IMG/VR virus record: IMGVR_UViG_3300020195_000060
Location: 1 to 41,577 of that record
DNA length: 41,577 nt
Origin: a virus
Direction: 5' to 3' (one strand)
In this document: positions 5,156-26,085 of the stretch, piece after piece
Layout: each line of letters opens with the position of its first letter
Numbering within the stretch: the stretch's first letter is position 1
Program-made: the position numbers and the translations under genes
The notes under the pieces: model-generated
Told to the model about the DNA's origin: nothing
Databases searched by the model: none
What the model saw: the letters and a program-made list of their open reading frames with translations, nothing else

Positions 5156-5393
5156 GGCCAAGCGCGGCCTGACCATGCGCTGGCACAAGGGAGACCGGAC
5201 CGAGTTCGTGCCGTTCAACCGCGACGCCGTAGTGGTATGGCGCGACCGCTTCGGCACCGTCAACGTAGCTGGCTGGGGACCGCCCGTCGACCCCGACAGT
5301 GAGGCGTTCAACGTGGCCGTCCGCTACGTCATCGTGTCGCTGGGCCTGAACCCCATCATCGAGCCGAGCGCCGACGAGCGCCTCGATGGCTGA
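5139..5393 (+). CDS. Small hypothetical protein between portal and MuF genes
   Basis: 84 residues from the GTG at 5139, overlapping the portal end by 17 bases, with GGAGGAG upstream. An ATG at 5175 (MRWHKGDR) would give a shorter form. The C-terminal half (VDPDSEAFNVAVRYVIVSLGL) looks compact and folded. The last 8 bases overlap the MuF gene start. Small genes are often found here in actinophages, but no function is recognised. Confidence 0.6.
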   Translation: MARRGRAKRGLTMRWHKGDRTEFVPFNRDAVVVWRDRFGTVNVAGWGPPVDPDSEAFNVAVRYVIVSLGLNPIIEPSADERLDG

Positions 5394-6276
5394 CCTCTAC
5401 CAGCTCGTCGACGAGCAGCGGTCGTACCTGTCCTCGCTGGACCGCGTCACAGCCAGCCAGATGCACGCTGCGTACTCGAAGGTGCTTGACCAAGCCCGCA
5501 TCGACTACAAGGGCTTCACGGCTCGTCTGGAGACGTGGCAGCAGGCGCACCCGTCGATGGACCCGCGCGGTGCCTCGCCGCCCCGCCACTGGGTCTTCCA
5601 GCAAGCGCGCTACCAAGACCTCGTCACGCAGCTCGAAACGAACCTCACCTACTACGCCAAGGTGAGCGCGCTCTCCATCACCGAGGCGCAGCGCGCCGCC
5701 ATGGGCAAGGCGCAGGGCGACATGACCGAGGTCATCCGGGCCTCGATGGGTGGCGACGAGAAGGCCGCCGGCCATATCTCGATGGCCGTCCTGCCAGAGG
5801 ACGCCATCGAGGCGGTCGTGGGCTTCACGAGCGACGGGACACCGCTGAACACCCTTCTGCGTGAACGGTCCAACCGAACGTGGCAGGACGCCAGCTCGAC
5901 CATCGTCAACGGAGTCGCGCTCGGGCAGGGTCCGGTGGAGGTGGCGAAGCGCCTCGACACGCAGCTCACCACGCTCCACTGGCAGAACCTCCGGCTCGCC
6001 CGAACTGAGTCCATGCGGGCCTACCGCGAGGCGCAGCGGGTGAACATGCTCCAGAACTCCGAGGTCATCGCCGGCTGGCGCTGGTCGAGCGCCGCTGACG
6101 CCCGGAGCTGCCCCATCTGCCTCGGCCAGCACGGCAAGGTCTTCCCGCTGAAGCACGTGGCGCCCGGCGACGTCCCGCCCGACCTCGCTCACCACAAGGG
6201 CTTGGGCGACATCCTGTCCAAGCCGCCCCACACCCACGCTCGCGTGGACCTCGACATCGAGGCCACGGTGCGCTGA
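5386..6276 (+). CDS. MuF/SPP1 gp7-like head morphogenesis protein
   Basis: 296 residues. MuF proteins are minor head components placed next to the portal and needed for DNA entry or exit. The signature is in the C-terminal part: LARTESMRAYREAQ (about residues 205-218), then GWRWSSAADARSCPICLGQHGK (about 231-252) with CPIC, and an ending PPHTHARV. Canonical members end H-x-N-C-R-C; here both cysteines are replaced (THARV), while the canonical HPNCRC motif appears at the start of the giant gene 2.5 kb downstream. The gene may therefore be one piece of a rearranged or duplicated MuF pair. The start overlaps the preceding gene. Confidence 0.85.
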   Translation: MADLYQLVDEQRSYLSSLDRVTASQMHAAYSKVLDQARIDYKGFTARLETWQQAHPSMDPRGASPPRHWVFQQARYQDLVTQLETNLTYYAKVSALSITEAQRAAMGKAQGDMTEVIRASMGGDEKAAGHISMAVLPEDAIEAVVGFTSDGTPLNTLLRERSNRTWQDASSTIVNGVALGQGPVEVAKRLDTQLTTLHWQNLRLARTESMRAYREAQRVNMLQNSEVIAGWRWSSAADARSCPICLGQHGKVFPLKHVAPGDVPPDLAHHKGLGDILSKPPHTHARVDLDIEATVR

Positions 6277-6279
6277 ACG

Positions 6280-6699
6280 ATGGTTCGGGAGGGGTATTGG
6301 CGGGAATATCGGGCAAGGAACCGGGAGCGCATCCGGGCACAGGAGCGAGCCCGACGCACACCCGAGAGCAGGAAGCGCCGGCATGTCGCCGAGGTGGCCC
6401 GACGGAAGCGGCTAAGGAACGACGCGCCGGACGGGCTGATGGCGCTGCCGCTCGGCGGGCACGAGCTGATAGAGCGGGCCATGGCGATGACCAAGCCCCC
6501 GGCGCCCGGCGGCGCCTTGCGCTGGTCGGGCGAGCTGGACTACGAGGACCGGGTCATGGCAGCGGTCGAGGCCATGCTGGCCGGCACCGACCCAGCAGAG
6601 GCGATGCGAGCGGTGGGCAGCGAAGCCATCGCATGGGCCAAGGGCACGGTTCAGGCCACGGACCTGTTCTGGAGCGGGTTGACAGACGCGGCGCAGTAG
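6280..6699 (+). CDS. Basic hypothetical protein with Arg-rich N-terminus
   Basis: 139 residues starting 3 bases after the MuF stop. The first 48 residues are strongly basic (YWREYRARNRERIRAQERA, then RKRRH and RRKRLR), resembling the Arg-rich helix often found at the start of phage DNA-binding or HNH-adjacent proteins; no HNH motif is present. The rest is acidic and helical (DRVMAAVEAMLAGTDPAEAM). It is the first gene of a nine-gene accessory block that separates the MuF gene from the giant gene. Function unknown; nucleic-acid binding is an inference from composition. Confidence 0.6.
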   Translation: MVREGYWREYRARNRERIRAQERARRTPESRKRRHVAEVARRKRLRNDAPDGLMALPLGGHELIERAMAMTKPPAPGGALRWSGELDYEDRVMAAVEAMLAGTDPAEAMRAVGSEAIAWAKGTVQATDLFWSGLTDAAQ

Positions 6700-6708
6700 T
6701 GAGACAGT
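6679..6708 (+). promoter_or_regulatory. Candidate promoter TTGACA-18-GACAGT
   Basis: TTGACA at 6679-6684 and GACAGT at 6703-6708 (spacer 18) lie at the end of the preceding gene. The -10 is weak, but the same NANANT form follows TTGACA at 7452 and TAGACA at 38723. It would drive the gene at 6825 with a leader of about 110 bases. Confidence 0.4.
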
Positions 6709-6735
6709 AGCCCAGCAAGGGAAGGCAGACCAGCG

Positions 6736-6774
6736 GGCGAGGCGCAGCGCAGTTCGGATAATCGCTGGCTCGCC
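6736..6774 (+). other. Leader hairpin upstream of the 6825 gene
   Basis: GGCGAG (6736-6741) pairs with CTCGCC (6769-6774) and, inside it, CAGCG (6745-6749) pairs with CGCTG (6763-6767), leaving a 13-base loop. It lies in the 125-base gap 6700-6824, between a candidate promoter and the ribosome site. No other feature was seen in this gap. Confidence 0.4.
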
Positions 6775-6824
6775 GTGAGGCATTGGGGACGCCCACGGCC
6801 CCTTGCGTAGAAGGGAGCAACGGG

Positions 6825-7226
6825 ATGGGATACATCGAGGCACTCGAAGCCGCCGGGGCCGTCGTCCACAGCGACGCAAGCTTCGGGTCGTATCAAGGCG
6901 ACTGGCTCGCGTTCGTCACGTACAAGGACCAGACTGGACTCGTGCGGGGGGGATACGGCTCATGCTCGGGCTGTGACTCGTTCGCGGCTGAGTTCGACGA
7001 CTCTGAGGGGTGCGACGAACACCGATGGCATGAGCAGCCCGAGACGTGCGAGCCGTGCGCCGTCGCTAGAGTCGAGAGCAAGAGCAAGCTCGCTGCGTTC
7101 GGGGAGAGATACTTGGACAGCATCGAAGCGCCCGACGAAGTCATCGCCGAGTTCGTGGAGCAGAGCGTGTGGGACATGAGTGCTCCAGAAGTCGTGGCAT
7201 GGGTCAAGGCGCTGACGCCGCCATGA
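6825..7226 (+). CDS. Conserved-type phage hypothetical protein, Cys-rich
   Basis: 133 residues. ATG 6825 is chosen over an upstream in-frame ATG at 6783 because GAAGGGAGC lies at the right distance before it. The sequence GSYQGDWLAFVTYKDQTGLV and CSGCDSFAAEFD, then CDEHRW and CEPC, is a pattern I associate with a widespread but uncharacterised actinophage family. The CxxC pairs suggest a bound metal. A helical C-terminus (APDEVIAEFVEQSVWDM) follows. The stop overlaps the next ATG by 4 bases. Confidence 0.7.
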   Translation: MGYIEALEAAGAVVHSDASFGSYQGDWLAFVTYKDQTGLVRGGYGSCSGCDSFAAEFDDSEGCDEHRWHEQPETCEPCAVARVESKSKLAAFGERYLDSIEAPDEVIAEFVEQSVWDMSAPEVVAWVKALTPP

Positions 7227-7444
7227 CCTTCGCCTACTACATCAAGCAGCACCCCGGCCCGAGCGAGGCCGCGGCCGTTCTCCGCGTCCGGGGCACCGAA
7301 GGCTGGTACCTCGACCGCTCGACCGGCGAGTGGGTCGCCGCGCCGTGGGTCCGCACCGAGGTCGACTGGGGCAACGAGACGTTCCTCGTGTCGCCCGAGC
7401 AGGCCGCCGTCGCCGCGAAGAAGTGGGGCCACGCTCTCGCGTAG
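7223..7444 (+). CDS. Small hypothetical protein
   Basis: 73 residues from an ATG that overlaps the previous stop (ATGA), so translation is coupled. It contains a compact WYLDRSTGEWVAAPWVRTEVDWG stretch rich in tryptophan and a C-terminal alanine helix (QAAVAAKKWGHALA). No known motif was recognised. It closes the first small transcription unit before the promoter at 7452. Confidence 0.55.
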   Translation: MTFAYYIKQHPGPSEAAAVLRVRGTEGWYLDRSTGEWVAAPWVRTEVDWGNETFLVSPEQAAVAAKKWGHALA

Positions 7445-7451
7445 AACCTAG

Positions 7452-7480
7452 TTGACATGGTGGCGCGCCCGTGGGACACT
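7452..7480 (+). promoter_or_regulatory. Promoter TTGACA-17-GACACT, probably leaderless
   Basis: A perfect -35 TTGACA (7452-7457), a 17-base spacer and GACACT (7475-7480). The expected transcription start falls at about 7487, which is the A of the next ATG; there is no ribosome site. This fits leaderless transcription, common in actinobacteria. Confidence 0.6.
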
Positions 7481-7486
7481 TACGCC

Positions 7487-7699
7487 ATGGCACGGAAGAA
7501 CCACTCCTGCACCAAGACCGAGGCGAGGGAGCACCGCATCGCGCGATTGGCGAACCGCGAGGAGGTCATCGCCCACGCCGGGCGCTCGCCCGAGCGGCTG
7601 ATGACCGGGCACGCGCTCTGCGGCGGCTGCTTCAAGCCGGTCTCCGTGTGCAGGATGGGTCGCTACCACCACGTCTCAGCGAAGGGAGAAACGGGATGA
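7487..7699 (+). CDS. Small basic Cys/His protein
   Basis: 70 residues, from the first ATG after the promoter at 7452. It has a basic N-terminal half (MARKNHSCTKTEAREHRIAR) and a CGGCFKPVSVC...YHH cluster in residues about 45-60 that could bind zinc. It starts a run of coupled small genes reaching 8588. A zinc-binding, nucleic-acid-associated role is possible but unproven. Confidence 0.55.
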   Translation: MARKNHSCTKTEAREHRIARLANREEVIAHAGRSPERLMTGHALCGGCFKPVSVCRMGRYHHVSAKGETG

Positions 7700-7869
7700 A
7701 CAAGGCAGATGTTCCCAATCGCCGGGGCGTCTACTACGGCCGGAGGTGCCAATGCGTCGCCGACCACAACCTCGACGGCAACCCTGCCCGCTGCCTGAAC
7801 CCCGTCATGGGCAAGGACCGCAAGTGCGCCAACTGCAAGGTCGCATACTGGAAGGGAAGCGCGCGATGA
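7696..7869 (+). CDS. Small Cys-rich protein
   Basis: 57 residues from an ATG overlapping the previous stop; GAAGGGAGAAACGGG precedes it, a strong ribosome site. Cysteines occur as RRCQC, ARC and CANCK, with a nearby His (DHNLDG), suggesting a small zinc-binding fold. The protein is positively charged. Function not recognised. Confidence 0.5.
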   Translation: MNKADVPNRRGVYYGRRCQCVADHNLDGNPARCLNPVMGKDRKCANCKVAYWKGSAR

Positions 7870-8120
7870 CCGCCCGGGGCCGCGCCGGCAACGGAAACGT
7901 CACCATGACGATGACTGACCGCCTGTTCACGGTCGACGCCAACGACGCCGCCGCACGGTCGATGCGTGCGCAGGGCTTCCTGTTGCGTGCGCAGGCCGTC
8001 GTCGCCATGGCGTCGACCATGGGCTGGGACACCAGCGAGGCCGAGGTGCTCATCAACCGGGGCAAGCGCGGCGTCGCCAACGCGGGCTTCGTCGTCACGC
8101 TCTGGAGGGCCGCCAAGTGA
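7866..8120 (+). CDS. Small hypothetical protein
   Basis: 84 residues from an ATG coupled to the preceding stop. The first 17 residues (TARGRAGNGNVTMTM) look disordered; the remainder is helical, with DAAARSMRAQGFLLRAQAVV and an alanine-rich core. An internal ATG (MTDRLF) may be the true start of the folded part. No motif was identified. The stop overlaps the next GTG by 4 bases. Confidence 0.5.
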   Translation: MTARGRAGNGNVTMTMTDRLFTVDANDAAARSMRAQGFLLRAQAVVAMASTMGWDTSEAEVLINRGKRGVANAGFVVTLWRAAK

Positions 8121-8404
8121 GGTTCGACGACGTCGACTACTCCAGCCTGCCGAACCATATGCAGGAGGGCGCCAGCGACTACGTTTCCAAGGGCTCTCTG
8201 CCCGGCGGCTTCTTGATGGCGGTGCTGTCCAACGACCTCGTCGGTGCCTTCGGGCAGGCGGACATCATCAACACTCACGCGATGCGCGATTGGGCGGCGT
8301 GGCTCCACAACGAGGCGCCCAGTGAGTGCTGGGGTTCACGTGAGAAGGTCTACGCGTGGGGCGTCGCGCGAAGGGCGGAAGCGGAGGTCGTTCCCCATGG
8401 ATAA
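8117..8404 (+). CDS. Phage hypothetical protein (LPGGFLMAVLSNDL family)
   Basis: 95 residues from a GTG coupled to the preceding stop. It carries the pattern LPNHMQEGASDYVSKG then LPGGFLMAVLSNDLVGAFGQAD and LHNEAPSECWGS, which I recognise as typical of a widely distributed small phage protein of unknown function usually found in accessory regions. The last 15 residues are charged and may be a tail. It overlaps the next gene by 8 bases. No catalytic motif is visible. Confidence 0.65.
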   Translation: MRFDDVDYSSLPNHMQEGASDYVSKGSLPGGFLMAVLSNDLVGAFGQADIINTHAMRDWAAWLHNEAPSECWGSREKVYAWGVARRAEAEVVPHG

Positions 8405-8588
8405 CTGCCCGGCGTGCGGCGACCCAATCGACTACTGCCAAGGCCACGGCGAGATTGGCGACCCAGCCGGGTTCGCCCGGCTGGAAGCCCACGACGACGG
8501 CGACCACTCGGACTGCCATCCCGACGGGTGCGAGGCGCTCACCGAGCGCACGCGGTCGCATTGGCAGCGGTCCATGGCGTCGTACTAG
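8397..8588 (+). CDS. Small zinc-knuckle-like protein
   Basis: 63 residues from ATG 8397. CPACG at the N-terminus, CQGHGEIGD, then HDDGDHSDCHPDGCEALTE give several Cys/His pairs, suggesting one or two bound metal ions. It is the last member of the coupled set begun at 7487. No known family name can be given. Confidence 0.55.
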   Translation: MDNCPACGDPIDYCQGHGEIGDPAGFARLEAHDDGDHSDCHPDGCEALTERTRSHWQRSMASY

Positions 8589-8591
8589 CCC

Positions 8592-8600
8592 TGATATCCT
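8592..8600 (+). promoter_or_regulatory. Extended -10 TGATATCCT, possibly leaderless
   Basis: TG-A-TATCCT lies 7 bases before ATG 8608 with no ribosome site between them. No good -35 exists at 16-18 bases, so it would rely on the extended -10. If active it could serve both the 71-residue gene and the giant gene. Confidence 0.35.
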
Positions 8601-8607
8601 CGCCACC

Positions 8608-8823
8608 ATGGCGAGAGGGGTCATCACCGTCACCGTCGGGTCGCGCATCCGGCCAAGGGGCATCTTGCTCCTCGCCCGAGTCGCGGCCCGTCTTGGCGCC
8701 CTGCGCGTGGCGGCGTGGGCCATCCGCCGCGTCCGGGTCGAGGTCAACTTCGACGGCGGGCCGTGGGTGCTGTCCGGCGTTCAGGTCTACCTGACCGTCG
8801 ACGGTCAGCGCCACCATGGCTGA
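8608..8823 (+). CDS. Small basic, partly hydrophobic protein
   Basis: 71 residues from ATG 8608. It contains an amphipathic or membrane-like stretch GILLLARVAARLGALRVAAW (about residues 18-37) followed by RRVRVEVNFDGGPW and a beta-like end. It overlaps the start of the giant gene by 8 bases, so translation of the giant gene is probably coupled to it. It could be a small membrane-associated protein; no specific role is known. Confidence 0.5.
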   Translation: MARGVITVTVGSRIRPRGILLLARVAARLGALRVAAWAIRRVRVEVNFDGGPWVLSGVQVYLTVDGQRHHG

Positions 8824-11800
8824 GGCGGTCGCCGCCCGAGTCCCGGTCGTCGACTACATGCACACGCACCCGAACTGCCGGTGCGTGATGGTCCCGGTCG
8901 CGAAGTCGTGGACGGAGCTTGGCTACCCTGAGATTGACGCGGCCATCGCCTCGGGCGAGCTGGATGGGCCGGCCAAGACTCAGAGCGGCGAGGACGTCCT
9001 GCGAGGCATGTCGGTCCGCCAGCAGCAGCGCACCCTCGGTCGAGGTCGCTGGGGCGCGTGGCGCGGCTCGACTGTTCCGGGCGCACCGGAGGGCGTCGGG
9101 CTCCCGCTGAGCAGGTTCTACGTGGACCGCTACAACGAGGAGTGGGGCTGGATGCTCCAGCTCCGCAACTTCGAGTCGACCATGACCGAGCTGGCGCAGG
9201 AGACCTCGCCAGAGGTCGCTGAAGCCGTCAGGACGTGGCGCTACCCGCCCAAGCAGCTCGTACGCCAGTACCGCTCGGAGATGCCCCTGCCGGCGCTCCC
9301 GCCGGCCGTTGCGGAGACCGTCCGCGAGGAGACCGAGATTGCCATGGGCCGCTGGCAGACGAAGATAGCGACCGAGATTGCCGACGACATCGGCGAGGAG
9401 GTCGCCACCGACGACGCGCGGGTCGACGCCAAGATTGTCCAACTGAACGCCGCCGTTCGGGCAGCCCTCGACCCGGTCAAGACCGAGGTGCGCATCCGCG
9501 TCCCCGAGGCCGTGCTCGGTAGCATCCTCGACGACGGACGGTTGAAGTCGCAGTTCGAGGTGGGCCGCTCCCGTGGGATGTTCGACCCGGACACACGGGC
9601 GAATACCGAGCGCATCCGGTTCGGCTACGAGGCCGTTTGGCCTGACGGCAATCCGCTCAACCGCATCGAGTTCCCGGTCGAGCAGCGGCCCATCTACGGC
9701 TACATCGGCGACGTGTGGGAGGACGGGGCGACAGACCACTACGGCAACGTGGTCATCCGCCTGCGTGACACCGTGGACGCACGAACCACCGTGACCGGCG
9801 TCGACTCGCTCATCTTCGGGACACGCACCGAATACTCGCAGGCCGCCGCTGTGCCGTACGTCGAACCGACAATCGCCATGATGCCGACCCTGCGCGGTGC
9901 CGCCGACGTCCTCGACTCCAGAAACCTCGAAGACCTCGGGCTCGGCGAATACATCGAGGCGCAGGTCCACGGTCAGGTCACGCTCGACGACATCGCCGAG
10001 GTGGTGTTCACGGAGTCGCTACCCGAAGCGTTCATCGGGGACGCGATTGACGAAGACGACTTCACGGAGATGCAGACCAACGCCAATCAGGGCAGGGAGC
10101 GGCGCGAGCAACTGAAGACCCGCCTGACTGAGCTGGGCATCCAGTGGCGCACCGTTCCTACGTGGAACGAGGACCGTGTTGCCGGCAAGGCCGTCGACCC
10201 CAAGCCCGCAATCGCCAAGCCCACCGCCAAGCCGCGCGCTGTTGCACGTGAAACACGGACCCCGGTGCGCAGGCGAGCGGCGGCGCCTGCGCCGATGTAC
10301 GGCCCGGTCGAGTCTGCGTGGGTCGACCCCGGCGAGAAGCCCAACGAGCGGATGCCCGAGGACATCACCTCGTGGCCGAACGACGTGGCGATGGAGTGGT
10401 TCGACGCGAAGCGCAAGCTCGTGCAGGCATGGACGAACGCCATCCAGACCGGGCTCTCCATGGGGCTCATCACCAAGGAAGACGCGGTCGAACGGGGCTG
10501 GGACTACCCGAGCGGGCGCATCGACAGCATCGGCCCGCTGCCGGCCACGCTCTACCACGCCACCACGGCGGTCAGCGCCATCATGGCGACGGGCCTGAAG
10601 ACGCGCGACGAGCTGTCCGGCGTCACGGCCCTCGGCGGCGGCCCGACCGACACCATCTCGTTCACGACCGACAGGGCCATCGCGGTGCGCATCGCCGAAG
10701 TGTTCATCGAGGCGCACGATGTCCTGACCGGCGCGCTGACGTTCGAGACGCTGGTCGAGCGGGCCGAGGCCGGCGGGTTCCTGAACGAGTGGATTGGCAG
10801 CGTGGTCGGTGGGCGAGACCTGCCAGTGGGGCCGGAGGGTGACGCCCGGCGGGCGACGTTCTACCGATTGTTCCGCGACCGGCTGAAGTACGAGCGCGCA
10901 TCCTTCCCCCTGCCGGCGAACGAGCTGCCGGCGGGGTCCATCCCTGACGCTGACGCGGCGTCGGTCGGTGGCGACGGCGTGGTGCGCTACTACGCATGGG
11001 ACCGGCCGATGACCGAGGACGAGTACCTCGAAGACCTGTTCGACGCGTGGCGCGGCCCGTACAACACGTGGCAGGAGGTCAAGGGTGGGCCGATGGACCC
11101 GCTGTTCTTCAGCCCGGACATCGAAGCCCTGAAGCGCATGGACGTGTCGCAGGTCGGCGTGGTCGAGGGGACGCCCGTGCCGGGTGCGGTCGGCGTGCAG
11201 GTCAGCAGCCTCGGCGAGTGGCGCACGTGGGCCGGCGCTGCCGTCACCGTCCAGCAGATGGTCATGCAGGGGCCGGCGGTGGCCGTGGAGGAGGCAGTCA
11301 GGTCGGAGGAGGAACAGCCCGAGGCAGGTCCACCGGCCGACTACGTGCCGGCGCCCATCGGCCTGCGCTTGGACCGCCCCAAAGACCCGCAGCGTGCCCG
11401 GGTGTTCGACACGGCGCTCGTCGCCCGCGAGGCCATCGCCAAGGCGCTCGGCATCAACCCGTCCGAGTCGCGCTGGTCGGGCGACGTCATCATCGAGAGC
11501 AACTCGTATCCACGTGGCGGGTACTTCAACTGGGAGGGCTCGCTCGCCATCCGCGATGCGACCGAGCAGTCCATCGCCCGGCGCATCGGGCTGGTCGTCC
11601 ACGAGATGCTCCATGCCGCGTCGGCCGGCTCGCACCCTGCCGCCTACCGCGTGTGGCCGGGCTGGGAGGAAGGCGTCGCCGAGGGGCTGACGCAGATACT
11701 CGTCGGCGAGGTCGCTACGACCATGGGCTACGACGCCGCGTCGGTCAACGAGACCCGCGGCATCGAGGGGTACGCGGAGTACACCGGCCCGCTGGAGACC

Positions 11801-14800
11801 ATCCGCGGGCTCCTCGGGATGACGCCCGAGGCGTTCTACGTGGGCCTCATCCGCACGCCCATCATGGACCGCCCCAAGCAGGTCAAGGACTGGGCCTACG
11901 ACAAGCTCACCACACCGAATGACTGGCGGCGCGTGTGGGCCGCCGTGCGGGCGCTGGACACCGCCAACCCCATCGCCAGCGAGGAGTACCGGGCTCCCGA
12001 GCGCATGGGCCGCCGCGGTCGACTGCGCGACCTGTCTGACGTGGTCGAGGAGCTGCGCCTGCTCGTCGACATGCCGGCCCCGAGCTTCTACGGCCCGATG
12101 CTGAACCTGCCCGGGCGCGACGTCGCCAACCGCCTTCAGGAGTACCTGAACGCCTACCAAGAGACCCGGCAAGCGTTGACCCCGGAGGAGCGCGAGGCGA
12201 CGCGCGAACAGAACAACCGGCTGCTGCGCCAGCTCGGCGGGGTGGGCGCGTCCGGCACCGTCTCAGTCGATGGGTTCGGGTTCGGCGTGGCGCCCGCTGA
12301 CACGCGCTCGCTCAACGAGGTGGCCCGCAGCGCCTACCAGCAGGCCGTGGTGGCCGAACCCGGCATCACGGCTGACGTGGTCGAGATTGGCGCGGCGCTG
12401 GGGCTGGACCCGGACTACGAAGGCAGGGTGCTCGACAACCGCCTGAAGTCGGAGTTGAGTCTGCGCAGGAAGATTGGCAACGACGCCGCGGCCGAGGCCG
12501 TGACGTTCGAGCAGGCGGCGGCCAATCTGAAGGACACGGTCCGATACACCTATGTCGTCGAGGTCGAGGGCTACGCGGCCTCGTATCGAGCGACCGAGGC
12601 GGCGTTCCTCGCCCGGGGCTACACCCTTCTGCGCACCAAGAACTTCTGGCATCCCGAGCCGCGCCAGTATCAGGGGCTCAACTCGGTCTTCATCAGCCCG
12701 ACCGGGATGCCCGTCGAGGTCCAGTTCCACACCGCCGACAGCCTGCGGGCGAAGAACCTCAACCACGAGCTGAAGGACGAGTTCGAGCTGGCGACCACGA
12801 CCGAGGAGCGCCGGGAGGAGCTGCTCCAGCAGATGCTCGACAATCAGGCGCCCATCCCCGACCCGCCCGACGTGTACGGCATCGGCGAGAGCGTCGACCG
12901 CACGCCCATGCTCGGCCCGGTCGAGAGCATCATCGAAGGCGCCATCGGCAGCGCCGCGCAGTCGGCCTTCACGGTCGTAATCCCCGACCTCAACACCGCG
13001 CGCCTCGAAACGCGCCTGCACGCGGTCGAGCCGAGCTGGAACATCCGGCGCAACCAGCGCGAGCTGGACGAGCTGGTCCTTGTCTTCGGCTTCCCGACGA
13101 CCGGCCAAGAGGGCACGGTGCTCCGCTCCGACTCGGGCCGGTTCCCGGTGTACGTGACGTATGCCATCGGCACGGGCGAGCCGTTGTCCGCCTACCAAGA
13201 CGGCAACCTCATCCTCGGCGCCAGCGTCAACCAGAGCGTCGTCACGGGCATGTACCAGCAGGTGCTCGCCCGAGAGGGCACAGCGGGCCTGACGCCCGCA
13301 GAGAAGGTCGACGCGGGTCCGACGCTGACGCTGGGCGGTGCTGGCGTGGTCGACTTCGAGATTGGCCGGGTCACGCCGGCAGAGGTCGAGGCCGAGGCTG
13401 AGTCCGACTGGGGCCGCGCGCCTGACTCCGTCCCGTGGACAGACCTCGTGTCGAACGTGATGCTCGACTATCCGACCGACGTGTCGAAGGCGGGGACCAT
13501 CGAGCGTATCGCATGGGTCGGAGGGCGCGCGTTCGACGGCACGGAGGGCTGGGTCTCCTACATCCGCCGTGACTCGCTCGGCGTCGCGGCAGCCATCTAC
13601 GCCATCGACGTCGTCAACGGCGCGCCGCGCTTCGCCGAGCTGGCGTTCCACCCCGACTACCCGAACATGCTGACGCCCGACACGACGCGCGAGCTGCGCC
13701 GCCATGCGTGGCTGGATGGCTTCGCGTCGCCGCCGGCTCCTGCGCCCGAGCGGACGCTCGTCCGGGCTAACGCCACCCGGAGGATGCGGTTGCGCACGAG
13801 CTGGAACGACTCCACTCGCCGCGAGAACGAGCTGGCGGCGGACCTGACCGGCGACCTCACGAACCAGTTGGTCGCGTTCTCGAACGGCGTGGGCTACTTC
13901 AACGCCGACTCGCGCCTCGTGATGTTCCGGCGCAACGGGGAGCGCGTCATCCTCGTGAGCCCTGACGTCACGAACCCCGATGATGCCGAGCTGCTCGCCA
14001 TCTTCAATCGGACGCCCTTCCCGACGACGCCCGCGCCGACGGGCGTGCCAGTGAGCTACATCTCCCGGGAGCGAGGCCGCTGGGAGTCGGTGTGGAGCGC
14101 CTACGGGACGGCTATCCGCGCGGACGCACACTGGAGCGACCCCGGTGTGTGGGAGCTGGACGTCGAGGGCCAGCCTATCCGCTACTGGGTCACGACCGAG
14201 GGCGTCGCCGGGGTGTGGGAGCTGCACATCGACGGCGACGGCTCGGTGAGCCTGAACCCCGACTTCGACATGACGGGCCTCGATGACGCCGCCATCACGG
14301 CGCGCTTCAGCATCGAGCCGAACACGCGCCCGACCGTAGTGGCCGGGCTTGGGCGCGAGCGCGCCGCGGTCACGATAGAGCGCGTGTCGTCCCCCGACTT
14401 CACGCGAAGGGCGATTGCGCTGGGCCTGCCGACGCATATGTCGGGCCGAGTTGGCCGGGCCATGCAGGCGCTCACTACCAGCATCGGAACGCAGGTTCTC
14501 GCCCTGTTCGACGGCGGCGCACTTCAGGCGTTCAGGGTCGACCATGGCGACCGAGTCCATGGCGACCGAGTAGCCATCGTGACCGACGACGCGTCGCCGC
14601 TCACGGACGCCGTACTGCACTCGTATCTCGCGGCGGCTCCCGGGGTCGTAGTGACCCCTCCAGACCCACTCATGGTGGACGACGACGTACTGTGGGCCGA
14701 CCTCGGTGCCCGCTCCACCGTCCGCGCGGGCGAAGACATCATCGCCGAGACCCCTGACGGCCTGCTCGTTTACTACGCCCTCGGGCTCGCGACAGCCACG

Positions 14801-17800
14801 AAGGACACAGCGACCGGCGTCATCCGATACCGCAGCGCCATCGGGCCGGTAGCCGCCCGGGCGGTCTGGAGCGACCCGAACGTGGACGGCAGCACCGGCT
14901 CGGCCCCAGCCGCCCCGGCCCCAGCCGCCGAGCTGCCGGCCGATTGGGACGAGGCGGTCGGCTCGTTCATCCTCGACCGCTGGGACGGCACGAACATCAC
15001 GGGCACGGTCACGGTCACGGAGTGGGACCGCAGCAACCCGGTCGAGGACGGCCCTGCCGGCGCCATCGTTCGCATCCCACCGCCCGGCGGCAACGTGGTG
15101 ATGTACGCGTCGTACGACGGCTTGGGCAAGCCTGACGGGTTCCTGTTCCTGCCGAGTGACGACGATGGCGAGCTGGGCATCGTGGTGACCAGACCCGGGC
15201 TCGACGACATCACGAGCGGCGCCATCGCAAGTGAGCTGCGCACCCGCGCCCGTCAGGCGGTCTTCATCCTGTCCGCGACGTGGGCTCGCGCCAACGAGGC
15301 CCAGCGTCAGACCGTCGGTGTCCGGGTCTTCATTCCGCCACCCGCGCCAATCCAAATCATCATTCCACCACTCGCGCCCCGGCCCGCCATGCCGACGGTC
15401 GCCGGCATGGGCTACGACGCCATCCAGACCGACTACGACTTCGACGCGACGATGAACACCGTCGCTGGTGGCATGGAACAGGACGGTCAGGTCAACGACA
15501 TCTCCGAGGTGCTGGACGGCCCGCCCAACACGTTCGCCCTGCACGGCCCGTACAGCTCACCGTGGAGCGGCGAGACGAACGGCGGCGTCGTCTACTACGG
15601 CCCGCACGGCGGGGCGGTGGCCGTGGCCCACATCGGCATGGCGCAGGGCGGTCAGACGACGCCCGACAACCCGGACGGAATGCGCTCGACCGGCGTTCAC
15701 TACATCAAGGTCCATCCGTCGTTCCGGCGACTCGGGATTGCCACGAGGCTGTATGAGTGGGCCACGCTGGCCGGGCTCCAGATTGAGGAGGAGTCGGGTC
15801 TCCACGGCCTGACCACTGACGGTGGCCGGTATTGGTCGGCCCGCCGAGCCAAGCCGTTCAGCCGGGTGTCCATGGCCGTCAGCCGGATGCGGCCCGAGCT
15901 GGGCGATGCGACCACGTTCGACGACGTCATCCATCTGCGCAAGAACAAGGTCATCGCCGAGGCGACCGACGCGCTCCCGAAGGAGCTGGCCGCCGACGGT
16001 GTCGACCTCATCGAGGGGGCGCCGGCCGCGTACTTCCTCGGGCGCCCGGGCTCCGCGTACGGCACAGCGAGCCCCTCAGCCACGCTCCCGAGCGAGATTG
16101 GCAAAGCGAACATCAAGCGCGTCATCCCGGCCAGCAACCCCGTCATCGGCCGCTTCGAGAACGGCGCGGAGCCGTCGCAGACCATCGAGATAGACCCGAC
16201 CGAGGCGACCCTCGACGACATCGACTTCGCGGGCGCGTATGCTGTCCGTCGGAACAAGCAGGATGCCGTCATCACCACGCTGGTCGGTGACGTGTTCGAG
16301 CGGCTTGGGCTGCCGGCCAACGGCGTGTCCATCCGCATCGAGGGCATCCCGCTGGGCCGCATGGCCGAGGTCTTCGCTGACGTGGGCGTCATCGTTCCGA
16401 TGGCGACCATTCACGACGCTACGGGCATGGTCGAGTTCAGCTCGTACGACGCGATGCTGACCGACGAGGTGAGGGCCGCGTTCGCCACGCTGGCGCAGAA
16501 GTACGGCGCCACGATGAACGTCCTGCCGGCGCATATCCGGTGGTACTGGCACGACCAAGAAACGCTCGACGCAGCAAAGGAATGGTTCAGTGGACCCCAA
16601 GACGCCAGCTTCCTCGCCAACGCCATCAAGTCCCGCCTTGTCGCTGCGGGAGATGCTCGACGCGCAAAGCGCATCCGAGCGCGCCGACGCCGTAGCCGCG
16701 TTCGACCGGGCGAGGGCGACGGGGCTGGAGGCGCACCGAGCGGGGACGGTCTCGCCGCGAGTGACGATGCTCGTGCCCAGCCTCTTGCCAGACGAGCCTT
16801 CCCTGCCGGAGCCATCCGACTCGACCCCGACCTGACCCGACCCCTTCGCGGGGAAAGCACGTTCCTGTTGGGCGAGGTCCGAACGCAGGCCGCGGGGGTG
16901 CTCGCGGAGGTCGAGGCTGCGACCGGGCTCGTGAACGTCAACTGGACGGGCCGGGTGAAGTGGCTTGTGCCCGGCGGCAAGCATGACGGAGCGCAGGCTG
17001 CGCTCGGCTGGGACGGCACCCTCTACGTAGACAAGAACCTCCTCCTCTCGACCGACACGGAGGCACTGCGCCACGTGCTCGTCCACGAGATGCTTCACGC
17101 GGTGAGCCAGACCACGGCTGAGAACTTCCAGCGCGACCCGTTGATGGAGGAGGGCATGGTCGAGGGTCTGGCTCGGGACATCACGGGCTACACGACTACC
17201 GCCTACCAGACCGCCTTGACCGCGTGGGAGCAGCTCCGTCAGGCGATGGACGTGCCCAAGCGAACGTTCTACGCAAAGGTCTTAGCGGAGCCGCTGGAGA
17301 CCCGGCGTGAGGTGCTGCGCGACTGGGCGGCGGCGCGCATGGGCGTGCCGGAGGGCTATCGGGCGGTCGTGCTGGCGACCTTCCGAAGCGAGGGTGCCGG
17401 CGACGCGGGACAGCGGACCATGCTGGCGCTCGATGCGTTCCGCATCCTGTTGGGCAAGCCCGCGGATAGCTTCTGGCGCGACATCGCCCAATCGGCTGAC
17501 CCGTGGCGGGCGATGATGGCCCTGTCGGCCGACGTCAGGGATGCAGCGGAGCGGAATGGGTGGCCGAGCTGGGCTGGTGCGCTGGGCATCGCGGTCGGGT
17601 TCGTGCGCGACATCGCCGAGGTCGACGGCCGTCCGTGGCCGCAACTGGCTATGGACATCATCGCGGGGCGTGTTACGCTGGCGCAAGCAGGTGCCAGCGT
17701 CCATGGGGCAGTTCCGCCGGACGGCGCCGCGCCTGCTGTTCGGGCTATGCGTGAGCGCCGAACGAAGCGAGCACTGGAGAAGCGGATGTCGAGACGGATG

Positions 17801-17878
17801 GCAGTCGAGGCGGCAGAGGTCGTGCGGGCGACACGCCGGCGCGGTGGTGGCGACTGGCCGCCCGTGGTGGCGCCATGA
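8816..17878 (+). CDS. Giant MuF-linked polyvalent/effector protein (3020 codons)
   Basis: The longest gene in the window, in the head module. In order: residues 16-60, HTHPNCRCVMVPVAKSWTELG and QSGEDVLRGM, the typical C-terminal end of a MuF head protein; 224-345, DUF3626-like (ILDDGRLKSQFE, RPIYGYIG, TVTGVDSL); 579-830, ADP-ribosyltransferase-like (LYHATT at 579, SFTTD at 615); 929-957, zinc-peptidase-like HEMLH plus EEGVAEG; 1239-1305, RelA/SpoT-like (KDTVRYTYVV, YQGLN at Y1285, EVQFHT at E1301); about 1460-2140, diverged beta-rich repeats near 100 residues apart; 2304-2309, GNAT motif RRLGIA; 2757-2784, a second HEMLH and EEGMVEG. Such multidomain proteins are thought to be packaged and injected with phage DNA to act on the host. 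All domain names are by-eye inferences. Coding character switches frame at about 16640-16835, so the end may be a separate gene. Confidence 0.8.
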   Translation: MAEAVAARVPVVDYMHTHPNCRCVMVPVAKSWTELGYPEIDAAIASGELDGPAKTQSGEDVLRGMSVRQQQRTLGRGRWGAWRGSTVPGAPEGVGLPLSRFYVDRYNEEWGWMLQLRNFESTMTELAQETSPEVAEAVRTWRYPPKQLVRQYRSEMPLPALPPAVAETVREETEIAMGRWQTKIATEIADDIGEEVATDDARVDAKIVQLNAAVRAALDPVKTEVRIRVPEAVLGSILDDGRLKSQFEVGRSRGMFDPDTRANTERIRFGYEAVWPDGNPLNRIEFPVEQRPIYGYIGDVWEDGATDHYGNVVIRLRDTVDARTTVTGVDSLIFGTRTEYSQAAAVPYVEPTIAMMPTLRGAADVLDSRNLEDLGLGEYIEAQVHGQVTLDDIAEVVFTESLPEAFIGDAIDEDDFTEMQTNANQGRERREQLKTRLTELGIQWRTVPTWNEDRVAGKAVDPKPAIAKPTAKPRAVARETRTPVRRRAAAPAPMYGPVESAWVDPGEKPNERMPEDITSWPNDVAMEWFDAKRKLVQAWTNAIQTGLSMGLITKEDAVERGWDYPSGRIDSIGPLPATLYHATTAVSAIMATGLKTRDELSGVTALGGGPTDTISFTTDRAIAVRIAEVFIEAHDVLTGALTFETLVERAEAGGFLNEWIGSVVGGRDLPVGPEGDARRATFYRLFRDRLKYERASFPLPANELPAGSIPDADAASVGGDGVVRYYAWDRPMTEDEYLEDLFDAWRGPYNTWQEVKGGPMDPLFFSPDIEALKRMDVSQVGVVEGTPVPGAVGVQVSSLGEWRTWAGAAVTVQQMVMQGPAVAVEEAVRSEEEQPEAGPPADYVPAPIGLRLDRPKDPQRARVFDTALVAREAIAKALGINPSESRWSGDVIIESNSYPRGGYFNWEGSLAIRDATEQSIARRIGLVVHEMLHAASAGSHPAAYRVWPGWEEGVAEGLTQILVGEVATTMGYDAASVNETRGIEGYAEYTGPLETIRGLLGMTPEAFYVGLIRTPIMDRPKQVKDWAYDKLTTPNDWRRVWAAVRALDTANPIASEEYRAPERMGRRGRLRDLSDVVEELRLLVDMPAPSFYGPMLNLPGRDVANRLQEYLNAYQETRQALTPEEREATREQNNRLLRQLGGVGASGTVSVDGFGFGVAPADTRSLNEVARSAYQQAVVAEPGITADVVEIGAALGLDPDYEGRVLDNRLKSELSLRRKIGNDAAAEAVTFEQAAANLKDTVRYTYVVEVEGYAASYRATEAAFLARGYTLLRTKNFWHPEPRQYQGLNSVFISPTGMPVEVQFHTADSLRAKNLNHELKDEFELATTTEERREELLQQMLDNQAPIPDPPDVYGIGESVDRTPMLGPVESIIEGAIGSAAQSAFTVVIPDLNTARLETRLHAVEPSWNIRRNQRELDELVLVFGFPTTGQEGTVLRSDSGRFPVYVTYAIGTGEPLSAYQDGNLILGASVNQSVVTGMYQQVLAREGTAGLTPAEKVDAGPTLTLGGAGVVDFEIGRVTPAEVEAEAESDWGRAPDSVPWTDLVSNVMLDYPTDVSKAGTIERIAWVGGRAFDGTEGWVSYIRRDSLGVAAAIYAIDVVNGAPRFAELAFHPDYPNMLTPDTTRELRRHAWLDGFASPPAPAPERTLVRANATRRMRLRTSWNDSTRRENELAADLTGDLTNQLVAFSNGVGYFNADSRLVMFRRNGERVILVSPDVTNPDDAELLAIFNRTPFPTTPAPTGVPVSYISRERGRWESVWSAYGTAIRADAHWSDPGVWELDVEGQPIRYWVTTEGVAGVWELHIDGDGSVSLNPDFDMTGLDDAAITARFSIEPNTRPTVVAGLGRERAAVTIERVSSPDFTRRAIALGLPTHMSGRVGRAMQALTTSIGTQVLALFDGGALQAFRVDHGDRVHGDRVAIVTDDASPLTDAVLHSYLAAAPGVVVTPPDPLMVDDDVLWADLGARSTVRAGEDIIAETPDGLLVYYALGLATATKDTATGVIRYRSAIGPVAARAVWSDPNVDGSTGSAPAAPAPAAELPADWDEAVGSFILDRWDGTNITGTVTVTEWDRSNPVEDGPAGAIVRIPPPGGNVVMYASYDGLGKPDGFLFLPSDDDGELGIVVTRPGLDDITSGAIASELRTRARQAVFILSATWARANEAQRQTVGVRVFIPPPAPIQIIIPPLAPRPAMPTVAGMGYDAIQTDYDFDATMNTVAGGMEQDGQVNDISEVLDGPPNTFALHGPYSSPWSGETNGGVVYYGPHGGAVAVAHIGMAQGGQTTPDNPDGMRSTGVHYIKVHPSFRRLGIATRLYEWATLAGLQIEEESGLHGLTTDGGRYWSARRAKPFSRVSMAVSRMRPELGDATTFDDVIHLRKNKVIAEATDALPKELAADGVDLIEGAPAAYFLGRPGSAYGTASPSATLPSEIGKANIKRVIPASNPVIGRFENGAEPSQTIEIDPTEATLDDIDFAGAYAVRRNKQDAVITTLVGDVFERLGLPANGVSIRIEGIPLGRMAEVFADVGVIVPMATIHDATGMVEFSSYDAMLTDEVRAAFATLAQKYGATMNVLPAHIRWYWHDQETLDAAKEWFSGPQDASFLANAIKSRLVAAGDARRAKRIRARRRRSRVRPGEGDGAGGAPSGDGLAASDDARAQPLARRAFPAGAIRLDPDLTRPLRGESTFLLGEVRTQAAGVLAEVEAATGLVNVNWTGRVKWLVPGGKHDGAQAALGWDGTLYVDKNLLLSTDTEALRHVLVHEMLHAVSQTTAENFQRDPLMEEGMVEGLARDITGYTTTAYQTALTAWEQLRQAMDVPKRTFYAKVLAEPLETRREVLRDWAAARMGVPEGYRAVVLATFRSEGAGDAGQRTMLALDAFRILLGKPADSFWRDIAQSADPWRAMMALSADVRDAAERNGWPSWAGALGIAVGFVRDIAEVDGRPWPQLAMDIIAGRVTLAQAGASVHGAVPPDGAAPAVRAMRERRTKRALEKRMSRRMAVEAAEVVRATRRRGGGDWPPVVAP
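16590..16835 (+). CDS. Overlapping frame, better coding signal than the giant gene here
   Basis: 81 residues from GTG 16590, in a different frame from the giant gene, with AAAGGAA 8-10 bases upstream. It reads as a normal protein (SLREMLDAQSASERADAVAAF, then a Pro/Ser-rich end), and most of its codons end in G or C. The giant frame across the same bases turns Arg-rich (RRAKRIRARRRRSR) with many A/T third bases. Either this is a separate small gene embedded in an accidentally open frame, or a one-base change moved the real frame and the upstream protein truly ends at 16835. Confidence 0.5.
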   Translation: MDPKTPASSPTPSSPALSLREMLDAQSASERADAVAAFDRARATGLEAHRAGTVSPRVTMLVPSLLPDEPSLPEPSDSTPT

Positions 17879-18108
17879 AGGACCAGCCGGCCATCCGCAA
17901 GCTCGTGCGCAACCGCATCCTCGGCGCTCGTACGCCCACGGACATCACCGAGGCCGAGGCGCTTCTCGACGAGTGGCTGGCCGCGCACCCCGACGACGAG
18001 GCCGTGCGCATCGAGGCGTCCGGTCTCCAGCGCATGAAGGACGCCCTGCGGCTCATCGACGCCGGCAAGGGCGATGAACGAGACCCGCGGAAGCGAGTCC
18101 TATCGTGA
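17875..18108 (+). CDS. Small helical hypothetical protein
   Basis: 77 residues from an ATG that overlaps the giant gene stop (ATGA), indicating coupling. The sequence is mostly helical and charged (IRKLVRNRILGA, EAEALLDEWLAAHPDDEAV, QRMKDALRLIDAGK). Its closeness to the giant gene could mean a chaperone or antidote role, but nothing in the sequence proves this. The stop overlaps the GTG at 18105 that precedes the next gene. Confidence 0.55.
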   Translation: MKDQPAIRKLVRNRILGARTPTDITEAEALLDEWLAAHPDDEAVRIEASGLQRMKDALRLIDAGKGDERDPRKRVLS

Positions 18109-18119
18109 TGGAGGAACCC

Positions 18120-18311
18120 ATGAGTCTCACGACCGACGAGCTAGCCCGCTACCCGACGTGGACACCGCGGGCGAGCCGCTGGGTGACTGAGGTCGAGGCC
18201 GTCATCGAAGTCGAGGTCGAGGAGCAGGTGAGCAATGCGTTCACGTTCTGGCTGTTTAGCCTCGCGGCGGGCACCATCGCCGGCATCGCTGTAGGTCTGG
18301 CCGTCGCGTGA
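18120..18311 (+). CDS. Small single-pass membrane protein
   Basis: 63 residues. ATG 18120 is preferred because GGAGGAA lies 5-6 bases before it; a GTG at 18105 would add five residues. The N-terminal 40 residues are acidic and helical (VEAVIEVEVEEQV) and residues about 43-62 (TFWLFSLAAGTIAGIAVGLAVA) form one transmembrane helix. Its stop overlaps the next GTG. Function unknown. Confidence 0.55.
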   Translation: MSLTTDELARYPTWTPRASRWVTEVEAVIEVEVEEQVSNAFTFWLFSLAAGTIAGIAVGLAVA

Positions 18312-18562
18312 AGACCGCCGTCGCGGCCGATGCGCCTGAGCCGACCGAGCCGAACATGGTCACGACCTCGGCGACAACAAGCGTCGCATCGTTCACTCTC
18401 ACCAACCTGACTCTTGCCGCGATGCCCAAGGCGCCCCTGACGTCGATGGCCTTTCAGTCCGCCGTCGCTGCGTGGGCGGCGCAGTTCGGCGCGGGCGGCT
18501 CGGCGCGGCTCACGGTCCGAGAACGCCCGGAGGGGTTCCTCTTTGAGCTGTGGGACCAGTGA
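18308..18562 (+). CDS. Hypothetical protein
   Basis: 84 residues from a GTG coupled to the preceding stop. The first 25 residues are Ala/Pro/Thr-rich and probably flexible; the rest has a small folded look (AFQSAVAAWAAQFG, ARLTVRERPEGFLFELWD). No family was recognised. It lies in the head module before the scaffold gene. Confidence 0.5.
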   Translation: MKTAVAADAPEPTEPNMVTTSATTSVASFTLTNLTLAAMPKAPLTSMAFQSAVAAWAAQFGAGGSARLTVRERPEGFLFELWDQ

Positions 18563-25668: not shown

Positions 25669-26085
25669 ATGGCGTTCACTCATGGCTCCAAGGCAAAGTT
25701 CTCGGTCCACGACAGCTCGGCCACGCTGCGCGACATCTCCAGCTACTTGACGAGCACCGGGCTCTCGCGCATGGCCGACATGGCCGAGACGTCCGCGCTC
25801 GGGACCACGGCCAAGACCTACATCCCGGGCATGACCGACGGGACCATCCCCCTTGATGGGCAGTTCGACCCGACCATCGACGGCTATCTGTCCCCGCTGC
25901 TCGGGTTCGAGACCCCGCTGTCGTGGGAATACTTCCCGGCCGGGACGCCCGTTGGCGTGACCAAGCCGAAGTACAGCGGGGCGGCGTTCCTGACGAGCTA
26001 CGACATCGAGACCGGCACCGACGACAAGGCCGGCATCAGTGGTGAGCTTCAGCTCACCGGGGCCGTCACCCGCGCCACCGCGTAA
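25669..26085 (+). CDS. Major tail protein 2 (paralogue)
   Basis: 138 residues with GAGAGAGGGG 9 bases upstream of ATG. It shares MAFTHGSKAKFS, RMADMAETSALG, TYIPGMTDGTIPLDG and LSPLLGFETPLS with the upstream gene but lacks the extra C-terminal domain. The stronger ribosome site suggests it may be the more abundant tube subunit, with the longer protein incorporated as a decorated minor form. Tail chaperone genes follow, as in most siphoviruses. Confidence 0.75.
   Translation: MAFTHGSKAKFSVHDSSATLRDISSYLTSTGLSRMADMAETSALGTTAKTYIPGMTDGTIPLDGQFDPTIDGYLSPLLGFETPLSWEYFPAGTPVGVTKPKYSGAAFLTSYDIETGTDDKAGISGELQLTGAVTRATA

What the first reader, a model, noticed from the sequence alone, without database searches (positions are those of the whole stretch)
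8816..17878. 3020-codon MuF-linked polyvalent protein with at least seven different domain-like regions
The longest reading frame in the genome lies in the head module, not the tail, and is four times longer than the tape measure. Its N-terminus carries HPNCRCVMVPVAKSWTELG and SGEDVLRGM, the end of a MuF head protein; then DUF3626-like, ART-like, HEMLH zinc-peptidase-like, RelA/SpoT-like, repeated beta-rich, GNAT-like and second HEMLH regions. Known families: MuF-linked toxins of temperate phages and polyvalent proteins of phages and conjugative elements. Inference: it is packaged via the MuF end and enters the host with the DNA, where several activities would attack or protect at once. The combination of DUF3626, ART, RelA/SpoT, GNAT and two peptidases in one frame may be undescribed.
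Basis: partly seen in the sequence, partly recalled or inferred. Interest (0 to 1): 0.92.

Follow-up and report, generated by a model that had tools for sequence, protein, structure and literature searches.

The report
Giant phage effector with split carrier
A phage gene encodes a 3,020-residue chain of enzyme domains that look built to be carried in the virus head, and it begins with the torn-off last piece of the head protein that normally carries such cargo, so carrier and cargo are probably two proteins that fit back together.

Summary
The open frame is real (8816-17878, 3020 aa, head module). Domains tested: a DUF3626 region that folds as an ADP-ribosyltransferase (ART) close to SopF/DarT; a second ART-like region, supported by one homologue and motifs only; two paralogous gluzincin-type metallopeptidases; and a small alarmone synthetase of the kind found in MuF toxins. 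GNAT is unproven, the beta-rich region unidentified. Several of these domains sit behind MuF in other phages, so this is a MuF-linked polyvalent protein, a known kind. The MuF body (CPIC) is a separate gene, 5386-6276; the giant starts with the rest (HPNCRC plus MuF tail); 2.5 kb of small ORFs lies between. In two more lineages the halves are also separate: touching as TGATG in L005, 0.8 kb apart in L002. In 48 of the 51 viral loci found through the right half the motif is whole in one frame. The giant's only two cysteines are those of its half-motif; the carrier's only two are the other half. Best reading: a two-chain MuF whose portal-bound half carries the giant into head and host. Docking is inferred, not shown. 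New variant of a known kind.

The parts
5386..6276 (+). MuF-N: MuF body, 296 aa, with the first half of the Cys motif (CPIC, residues 242-245, 6109-6120); its own stop codon
   Evidence: Phage_Mu_F PF04233 8.5e-11; PHROG_4728 positions 148-287, PHROG_241 83-261; only 2 Cys, both in the motif
6277..8815 (+). 2539 bp between the MuF halves, with nine small ORFs (6280-6699, 6825-7226, 7223-7444, 7457-7699, 7696-7869, 7866-8120, 8117-8404, 8397-8588, 8608-8823); TTGACA hexamers on the + strand at 6679 and 7452; four of the products are Cys-rich
   Evidence: no Rfam match at the gathering cut-off in the window, and two snoRNA hits far below cut-off in a permissive search of 6000-9100
8816..17878 (+). 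P0001, 3020-aa polyvalent protein; its start overlaps the end of the small ORF 8608-8823
8816..9145 (+). MuF C-terminal piece (residues 1-110): HPNCRC at residues 18-23 and the MuF tail; C21 and C23 are the only Cys of all 3020 residues
   Evidence: PHROG_241 263-332 (6.6e-5), PHROG_4728 284-306 (0.047); alignment A1; Cys count; 54 phage records match this piece at E<=1, the 25 listed all from residue 18 on
9383..10060 (+). ART-1, DUF3626 (residues 190-415), with conserved YIEAQVHG at 379-386
   Evidence: PF12294 9.1e-9; AlphaFold2 pLDDT 80; Foldseek SopF 7.7e-7, DarT 4.5e-3; VIA Z 12.6 to SopF, 8.4 to DarT
10442..11320 (+). ART-like-2 (residues 543-835): LYHAT 579, DTISFT 612, EWRT 801; fold not modelled
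   Evidence: Streptomyces plasmid protein WP_143626642.1: tblastn 1e-6 against the collection, pairwise BLASTP 7e-14, 27% identity, alignment A8; model pLDDT mostly under 50 here
11408..11995 (+). gluzincin-type metallopeptidase 1 (residues 865-1060): HEMLH 929-933, 18 residues, E952
   Evidence: MuF-gluzincin homologues L058, L059, L060; VIA Z up to 9.4 to M1 peptidases such as LTA4 hydrolase
12308..12895 (+). small alarmone synthetase (residues 1165-1360): RLKSELS 1209, DTVRYT 1240, YQGLN 1285, VEVQFHT 1300
   Evidence: PHROG_7625 4.1e-17; MuF proteins of Streptococcus phages; PDB 8vx3 4.1e-12 by sequence, Z 19.1 by fold
12953..15295 (+). beta-rich region (residues 1380-2160; beta by eye, not predicted), unidentified; a unit is duplicated in L001
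15383..15835 (+). GNAT-like region (residues 2190-2340), RRLGIA at 2304; unproven
   Evidence: PF13508 0.011, below cut-off; no support
16796..17305 (+). gluzincin-type metallopeptidase 2 (residues 2661-2830): HEMLH 2757-2761, MEEGMVEG 2777
   Evidence: paralogue of gluzincin 1, 29% identity; profile 2e-68, but this copy was one of the four in the profile
17875..18562 (+). three small overlapping ORFs behind the giant (17875-18108, 18105-18311, 18308-18562); candidate immunity genes by position only
   Evidence: no family match above a cut-off

Best explanation
P0001 is a virion-borne polyvalent effector attached to the phage head by a two-chain MuF. MuF-N (5386-6276) plays the part of SPP1 gp7: it binds the portal and enters the procapsid in a few copies (inferred from family). 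P0001 starts with the other half of the MuF Cys motif and the MuF tail; the four cysteines (CPIC in MuF-N, CRC in P0001) and the His of HPNCRC would form one metal knuckle across the two chains (inferred), so the giant is pulled into the head. It would then enter the next host with the DNA, where two ART modules modify host targets, an alarmone synthetase drains ATP into (p)ppApp or (p)ppGpp, and two gluzincins cut the chain apart or cut host proteins. Shown: the split, its sharing by three lineages, the conservation of both half-motifs, the predicted ART-1 and SAS folds, the gluzincin motif with supporting fold matches, and MuF linkage of the same domains elsewhere. Inferred: docking, packaging, injection, all activities, the second ART.
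For: MuF profiles are covered by the two proteins in neighbouring stretches: PHROG_241 83-261 by MuF-N (1.6e-5) and 263-332 by P0001 (6.6e-5); PHROG_4728 148-287 (4e-16) and 284-306 (0.047); PHROG_1657 77-281 and 283-304 (P0001 0.46); PHROG_595 100-285 and 281-303 (P0001 0.31). Halves separate in window/L001, L002 and L005; CxxC and CRC in one frame, 23-28 residues apart, in 48 of 51 loci, and whole in one frame in MT835568. After the split both half-motifs stay invariant in 3 lineages and are the only Cys of both chains in the window, L002 and L005 (right halves of L002 and L005 cut by contig ends). Domains. MuF linkage of the same domains. SPP1 gp7 is bound by the portal and targeted to the procapsid interior (PMC6316719, passages); Apk2 makes (p)ppApp (PMC12226406, first quarter of the text).
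Against: No structure of the two-chain complex could be made here, and I have no virion data. The 2.5 kb between the halves, with TTGACA hexamers, could uncouple their expression. Low Cys counts are common in this phage's packaging and virion genes (TerL 0 of 496, tape measure 0 of 761; expectation for P0001 about 8 from 16 such genes). No immunity protein was recognised. DUF3626 occurs without MuF in many loci (25 of 44 with none in the fetched stretch). No activity of any domain is shown here.
Confidence: 0.55

Rival explanations
1. The MuF piece on P0001 is a relic. MuF-N works alone as head protein, and P0001 is packaged by another signal or acts in the producing cell.
For: MuF-N keeps its own C-terminal end, similar in the window (ARVDLDIEATVR) and L005 (GRVDVEAMP), so it may have become self-sufficient; intervening ORFs may separate expression.
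Against: DYMHTHPNCRCVM is an invariant block of 13 residues among the split lineages, while L002 and L005 are 61% and 46% identical to the window over this piece; a relic should have decayed. CxxC and CxC are kept in the window, L002 and L005.
Confidence: 0.25
2. The halves are rejoined: the 2.5 kb is an intron, a split-intein arrangement or a bypassed stretch, or there is a frameshift or an assembly error, and the mature protein is an ordinary fused MuF-polyvalent.
For: Split point lies inside a motif that is whole in most loci; HTH codons occur at both junctions in the window. MuF-like genes are named among frameshift predictions counted as false positives in PMC10885494 (one passage).
Against: Same arrangement in the contig L001, and other spacings in L002 and L005; no intron family in Rfam searches; extensions of about 35 and 17 residues look too short for intein halves (sizes recalled, no profile run); in L005 the halves overlap as TGATG, in different frames; HTH is absent at the left junction of L002 and L003.
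Confidence: 0.07
3. P0001 is mainly a toxin for rivals or a brake in the producing cell, with the small downstream genes as immunity, as in MuF toxins of prophages.
For: The SAS domain is homologous to the end of MuF proteins whose gene order is that described for Apk2; small ORFs follow the giant, as they follow 89.4% of 191 MuF toxin genes in PMC5576092 (passages).
Against: No HD-hydrolase gene recognised behind it, whereas a small gene and an HD or metal-dependent phosphohydrolase gene follow the Streptococcus and Pasteurella phage genes; no integrase seen among scanned ORFs.
Confidence: 0.13

Closest known systems
Polyvalent proteins of phages and conjugative elements (Iyer et al. 2017, PMC5512222, passages)
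   Same: Many enzyme domains in one chain in the late/head gene region; zincin peptidases, ARTs, GNATs and RelA/SpoT domains are described there; often tied to MuF
   Different: Here the link to MuF is by a half-motif on the giant, with the MuF body on another gene; the term DUF3626 occurs in only 2 held papers, both on Salmonella
MuF polymorphic toxins, Apk2 type (PMC5576092, passages; PMC12226406, first quarter)
   Same: MuF followed by an alarmone-synthetase domain; the first 110 residues and residues 1165-1360 of P0001 both match proteins of that make-up
   Different: One toxin domain on one chain there; here several enzyme modules, MuF in two chains, no recognised immunity gene
SopF (DUF3626 effector) and DarT, ART superfamily
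   Same: Predicted fold: SopF Z 12.6, DarT Z 8.4
   Different: Phage module inside a polyvalent protein; target unknown; not tested for activity
SPP1 gp7 and its neighbours
   Same: Portal of SPP1 gp6 type followed by MuF; ORFs 8-10 follow gp7 in SPP1 too (PMC6316719, passages)
   Different: In SPP1 those ORFs lie behind the gp7 gene, not within it

Membership tests
Polyvalent protein | Several unrelated catalytic domains in one polypeptide of a mobile element | tested here: met
   ART, gluzincin-type, SAS in one frame
Polyvalent protein | Gene beside virion/packaging genes | tested here: met
   TerS, TerL, portal, MuF-N before; scaffold, major head protein after
Polyvalent protein | Delivered into the host | not testable with these tools
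   needs virion proteomics and an injection assay
MuF toxin | Complete MuF domain at the N-terminus of the same chain | tested here: not met
   MuF body is a separate ORF; only the last piece is on P0001
MuF toxin | C-terminal toxin domain of a known class | tested here: inconclusive
   SAS domain of a known toxin class is present but in the middle of the chain
MuF toxin | Small downstream immunity gene | tested here: inconclusive
   small ORFs present, no family match above a cut-off
ART superfamily (DUF3626 region) | ART fold | tested here: met
   Foldseek and VIA to SopF, DarT and other ARTs
ART superfamily (residues 543-835) | ART fold | tested here: inconclusive
   one plasmid homologue and motifs; model uninformative
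Gluzincin | HExxH plus downstream Glu | tested here: met
   both copies, HEMLH with EEG 17-18 residues on
Gluzincin | Zincin fold | tested here: met
   first copy: all 23 of the 50 rows shown that span this part are M1 peptidases, Z 7.8-9.4; a middling Z, and Foldseek's own top 50 shows none of them; second copy by homology only
Small alarmone synthetase | Fold and conserved positions (motif roles recalled) | tested here: met
GNAT | Profile match above cut-off or fold | tested here: inconclusive
   0.011, below cut-off; not folded
Group I/II intron in MuF | Covariance-model match | tested here: not met
   no intron family at the gathering cut-off in the window or in a permissive search of 6000-9100

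The most novel reading that the evidence does not exclude
A two-part MuF: a portal-bound socket protein and a separately encoded plug that completes the metal knuckle in trans. This lets the phage exchange a giant cargo of ART, peptidase and alarmone-synthetase modules without touching the head protein, and leaves a site between the two genes where gene cassettes of 0 to 2.5 kb collect.
Probability: 0.45. Interest if true: 0.78.

Novelty: new variant of a known kind. Interest (0 to 1): 0.6.

Why it matters
How phages load enzymes into the head is mostly inferred from fused genes. A carrier cut in the middle of its Cys motif, kept intact on both sides in three lineages, would give a small, testable docking pair (the end of MuF-N and about 110 residues of the giant) and a possible way to address cargo to a phage head. 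It also places the SopF/DarT-like DUF3626 fold among head-linked phage enzymes: MuF stands in the same frame in 13 of 44 loci, near-duplicates included.

Tried and rejected
Intron: Rfam at two thresholds gave no intron family. Intein halves: extensions too short (recalled sizes; no profile run). Frameshift fusion in L005: the halves are in different frames with a TGATG overlap and I saw no standard slippery heptamer by eye; not computed. Promoters: the generic scan found none in window 5200-9000 (shuffles 0.3) and one each in L002 and L003, both in the insert (shuffles 0.6 and 0.3). TTGACA on the + strand lies in the insert in 2 of 6 cases in the window, 2 of 2 in L001, 1 of 1 in L002, 3 of 3 in L003 (one of them, 4853, inside a small ORF), and at no junction in L005 (0 of 2). 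Suggestive only.

Residues 1501-3020 have no match in the phage collection at 1e-5; residues 2156-2615 none in viral contigs. The ART-like slice found only its near-copy in viral contigs, nothing in phages, one plasmid. GNAT: weak hits to Lactobacillus phages at E 0.2, not credited; plasmids and PDB nothing. Gluzincin by sequence: nothing in phages or PDB. DUF3626 by sequence against PDB: only dUTPases at E 0.37 and 0.78, not credited. Host: the genome scans gave no relative and one distant locus in an Azonexus MAG, so the host is unknown. PADLOC gave nothing for P0001 and four small ORFs.

First structure alignment A5 placed gluzincin and SAS rows on the DUF3626 part and was not used. The MuF profile held only 6 sequences through a faulty pattern, and one gluzincin row there was out of frame; both were redone. 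Copies of L001 (L057, L061, L062) and the window extract L004 were dropped from counts. The 48 and 44 loci are not all independent (for example L047-L049, L050-L051; L065-L066, L072-L073, L094-L096). The scan that found the 51 used P[VA][VA]DYMH and THPNCRC as patterns, so it favours loci with that half-motif. Papers PMC5512222, PMC5576092, PMC6316719, PMC6682159, PMC7302621, PMC9503650, PMC10885494 and PMC12691689 were seen in passages only.
Full report
What is there. The window is a viral record of 41,577 bases with a tailed-phage gene order: terminase small subunit 1819-2343, large subunit 2171-3661, SPP1-type portal 3665-5155, MuF 5386-6276, the giant ORF, scaffold 19580-20248, major head protein 20727-21662, tail genes, tape measure 26638-28923, RecE and RecT.

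The MuF gene is split. MuF-N (296 aa) has the MuF body and CPIC at residues 242-245 but then ends in its own stop. The missing end, HPNCRC plus the tail that follows it in other MuF proteins, is at the start of P0001. In four PHROG MuF profiles the two proteins cover neighbouring, hardly overlapping stretches: 83-261 and 263-332 (phrog_241), 148-287 and 284-306 (phrog_4728), 77-281 and 283-304 (phrog_1657), 100-285 and 281-303 (phrog_595). The P0001 matches have E 6.6e-5, 0.047, 0.46 and 0.31, so only the first is strong by itself. Between the halves lie 2539 bases with nine small ORFs.

It is not an accident of one assembly. L001, a contig with many differences, has the same order with 2414 bases between the halves. 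L002 (65% identical MuF-N) has 779 bases. L005 (43%) has none: the stop of one half overlaps the start of the other as TGATG. L003 has the left half, then at least 1830 bases and no right half before its contig ends; its left half is read in two frames. In 48 of the 51 viral loci found through the right half, CxxC and CRC lie 23-28 residues apart in one frame; the three others are L001, L002 and L005. In the phage collection 54 records match residues 1-135 at E<=1; the 25 listed all begin at residue 18, the His of HPNCRC; most of these are weak. In one of them, MT835568, both halves are in one 400-codon frame. So the fused form is widespread, and the split form was seen only in this group. The end of MuF-N is alike in the window and L005, which suggests one old split followed by insertion of different small genes. 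A short match (23 residues, 5.7e-7) joins one small ORF of the window's insert to one of L002's.

Selection on the two half-motifs. CPxC is invariant in the left halves, and DYMHTHPNCRCVM in the right halves, of three lineages. The only Cys in the left halves counted are those of CxxC (window, L002, L005, and the part of L003: 4 of 4). The only Cys in the right halves are those of CRC: 2 in 3020 residues in the window, 2 in 1928 in L001, 2 in 146 in L002, 2 in 205 in L005, the last three cut off by contig ends. At the rate of 16 other packaging, head and tail genes (14 Cys in 5061 residues) about 8 would be expected in P0001; this is only mildly unusual, since TerL and tape measure have none. 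I read it as two chains sharing one metal site. That CxxC/HxxCxC binds zinc in MuF is my inference; the one search for it found no held paper.

The modules. (1) Residues 190-415, DUF3626: Pfam 9.1e-9; a model from 32 sequences has pLDDT 80; best PDB matches are SopF (7.7e-7; Z 12.6, rmsd 4.8 over 219), then DarT (Z 8.4, rmsd 3.7 over 164) and other ARTs. SopF carries DUF3626 (PMC6682159, passages). E381 of YIEAQVHG is nearly invariant. (2) Residues 543-835: homologue in an 895-aa Streptomyces plasmid protein (tblastn 1e-6 in the collection) that has a GNAT-like N-terminus (2e-4, below cut-off) and lies next to a gene with ART-PolyVal and 2H domains; LYHxTT, SxT and EWRT are shared. ART is inferred from motifs (recalled), and the model is uninformative here. 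(3) Residues 865-1060, gluzincin type: the three other viral loci found have MuF and this domain in one frame of 524-552 codons, two of them identical. HEMLH-18-E fits (positions). In the second-look alignment all 23 of the 50 rows that span this part are M1 peptidases, Z 7.8-9.4 (best rmsd 4.0 over 180); the Z is middling for a helical part, and Foldseek's own top 50 lists none of them. (4) Residues 1165-1360, alarmone synthetase: homologous to the C-terminal domain of Streptococcus phage MuF proteins, one of which is followed by a small gene and an HD hydrolase gene, the order described for Apk2, which makes (p)ppApp (PMC12226406, first quarter of the text); PDB 8vx3, an exported synthetase of Streptomyces albidoflavus, 4.1e-12 by sequence and Z 19.1 (rmsd 3.6 over 194) by fold. 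Exported enzymes of this kind are reported to make both (p)ppApp and (p)ppGpp (PMC12691689, abstract and passages), so the product here is open. (5) Residues 1380-2160, beta-rich by eye, unidentified. (6) Residues 2190-2340, GNAT-like, unproven. (7) Residues 2661-2830, a second gluzincin, paralogue of the first.

Modular exchange. Between the window and L001, residues 1-130 show no codon difference, residues 130-540 (ART-1 and linkers) differ at 0.18-0.37 of synonymous sites, and residues 540-1380 at no more than 0.013 (uncorrected). ART-1 has been exchanged as a block. L001 also has an extra copy of a beta-rich unit (repeat motif at 1771 and 1876).

Known neighbours. In 44 DUF3626 loci (near-copy of the window excluded) 13 have MuF in the same frame, 6 in another frame of the fetched stretch, 25 none seen within it. 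D29 gp2 and a Nodularia phage protein have DUF3626 without a Pfam MuF. L097 has MuF, DUF3626 and alarmone synthetase in three adjacent ORFs in that order, the same order as here. L098 fuses portal, MuF and DUF3626. MuF joined to VIP2 toxin or portal, and giant genes of 13 kb, are described in Microbacterium phages (PMC7302621, passages). A split MuF was not found in print in searches of the held library, which lacks most subscription papers; the nearest is a remark that MuF-like genes appear among frameshift predictions counted as false positives (PMC10885494, one passage).

How it may work. SPP1 portal targets gp7 into the procapsid in few copies, and a toxin behind such proteins is proposed to be delivered (PMC6316719, passages). 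By analogy MuF-N sits on the portal and P0001 plugs into it. After entry the gluzincins could cut the chain, a theme proposed for polyvalent proteins (PMC5512222, abstract and passages). None of these steps is shown here. A split carrier would allow an unequal ratio of carrier to cargo and free exchange of cargo. Against this, the inserted ORFs may uncouple expression, and the piece could be a relic, though its strict conservation speaks against decay.

Verdict. Not an artefact and not ordinary, but of a known kind.

Noticed in passing
window 6825-7226, 7457-7699, 7696-7869, 8397-8588: Four of the nine small products in the insert are Cys-rich (4-5 Cys in 57-133 aa) while the packaging and virion genes nearly lack Cys; perhaps small zinc proteins.
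   Followed up: no
L097:1218-5948: MuF, DUF3626 and alarmone-synthetase ORFs side by side in the order seen in the split MuF and giant: a possible pre-fusion or broken-up state.
   Followed up: partly
L102:562-12510: An open frame of 3983 codons with a DUF3626 domain; other domains not examined.
   Followed up: no
L098:2116-7767: Portal, MuF and DUF3626 in one 1884-codon frame.
   Followed up: partly
L003:3578-4397: The MuF left half is read in two frames; whether real or an assembly error is open.
   Followed up: no
L107:3413-8583: A Streptomyces plasmid has neighbouring genes with ART-PolyVal and 2H domains (above cut-off) and ART-like, GNAT-like and ParB-like regions (the last two below cut-off); perhaps a polyvalent locus.
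   Followed up: partly
window 24930-25649 and 25669-26085: Two adjacent genes both match major tail protein families.
   Followed up: no
L034:8189-15517: A fused MuF frame of 2443 codons with DUF7178 and 25 Cys: a giant MuF protein of another make-up.
   Followed up: no
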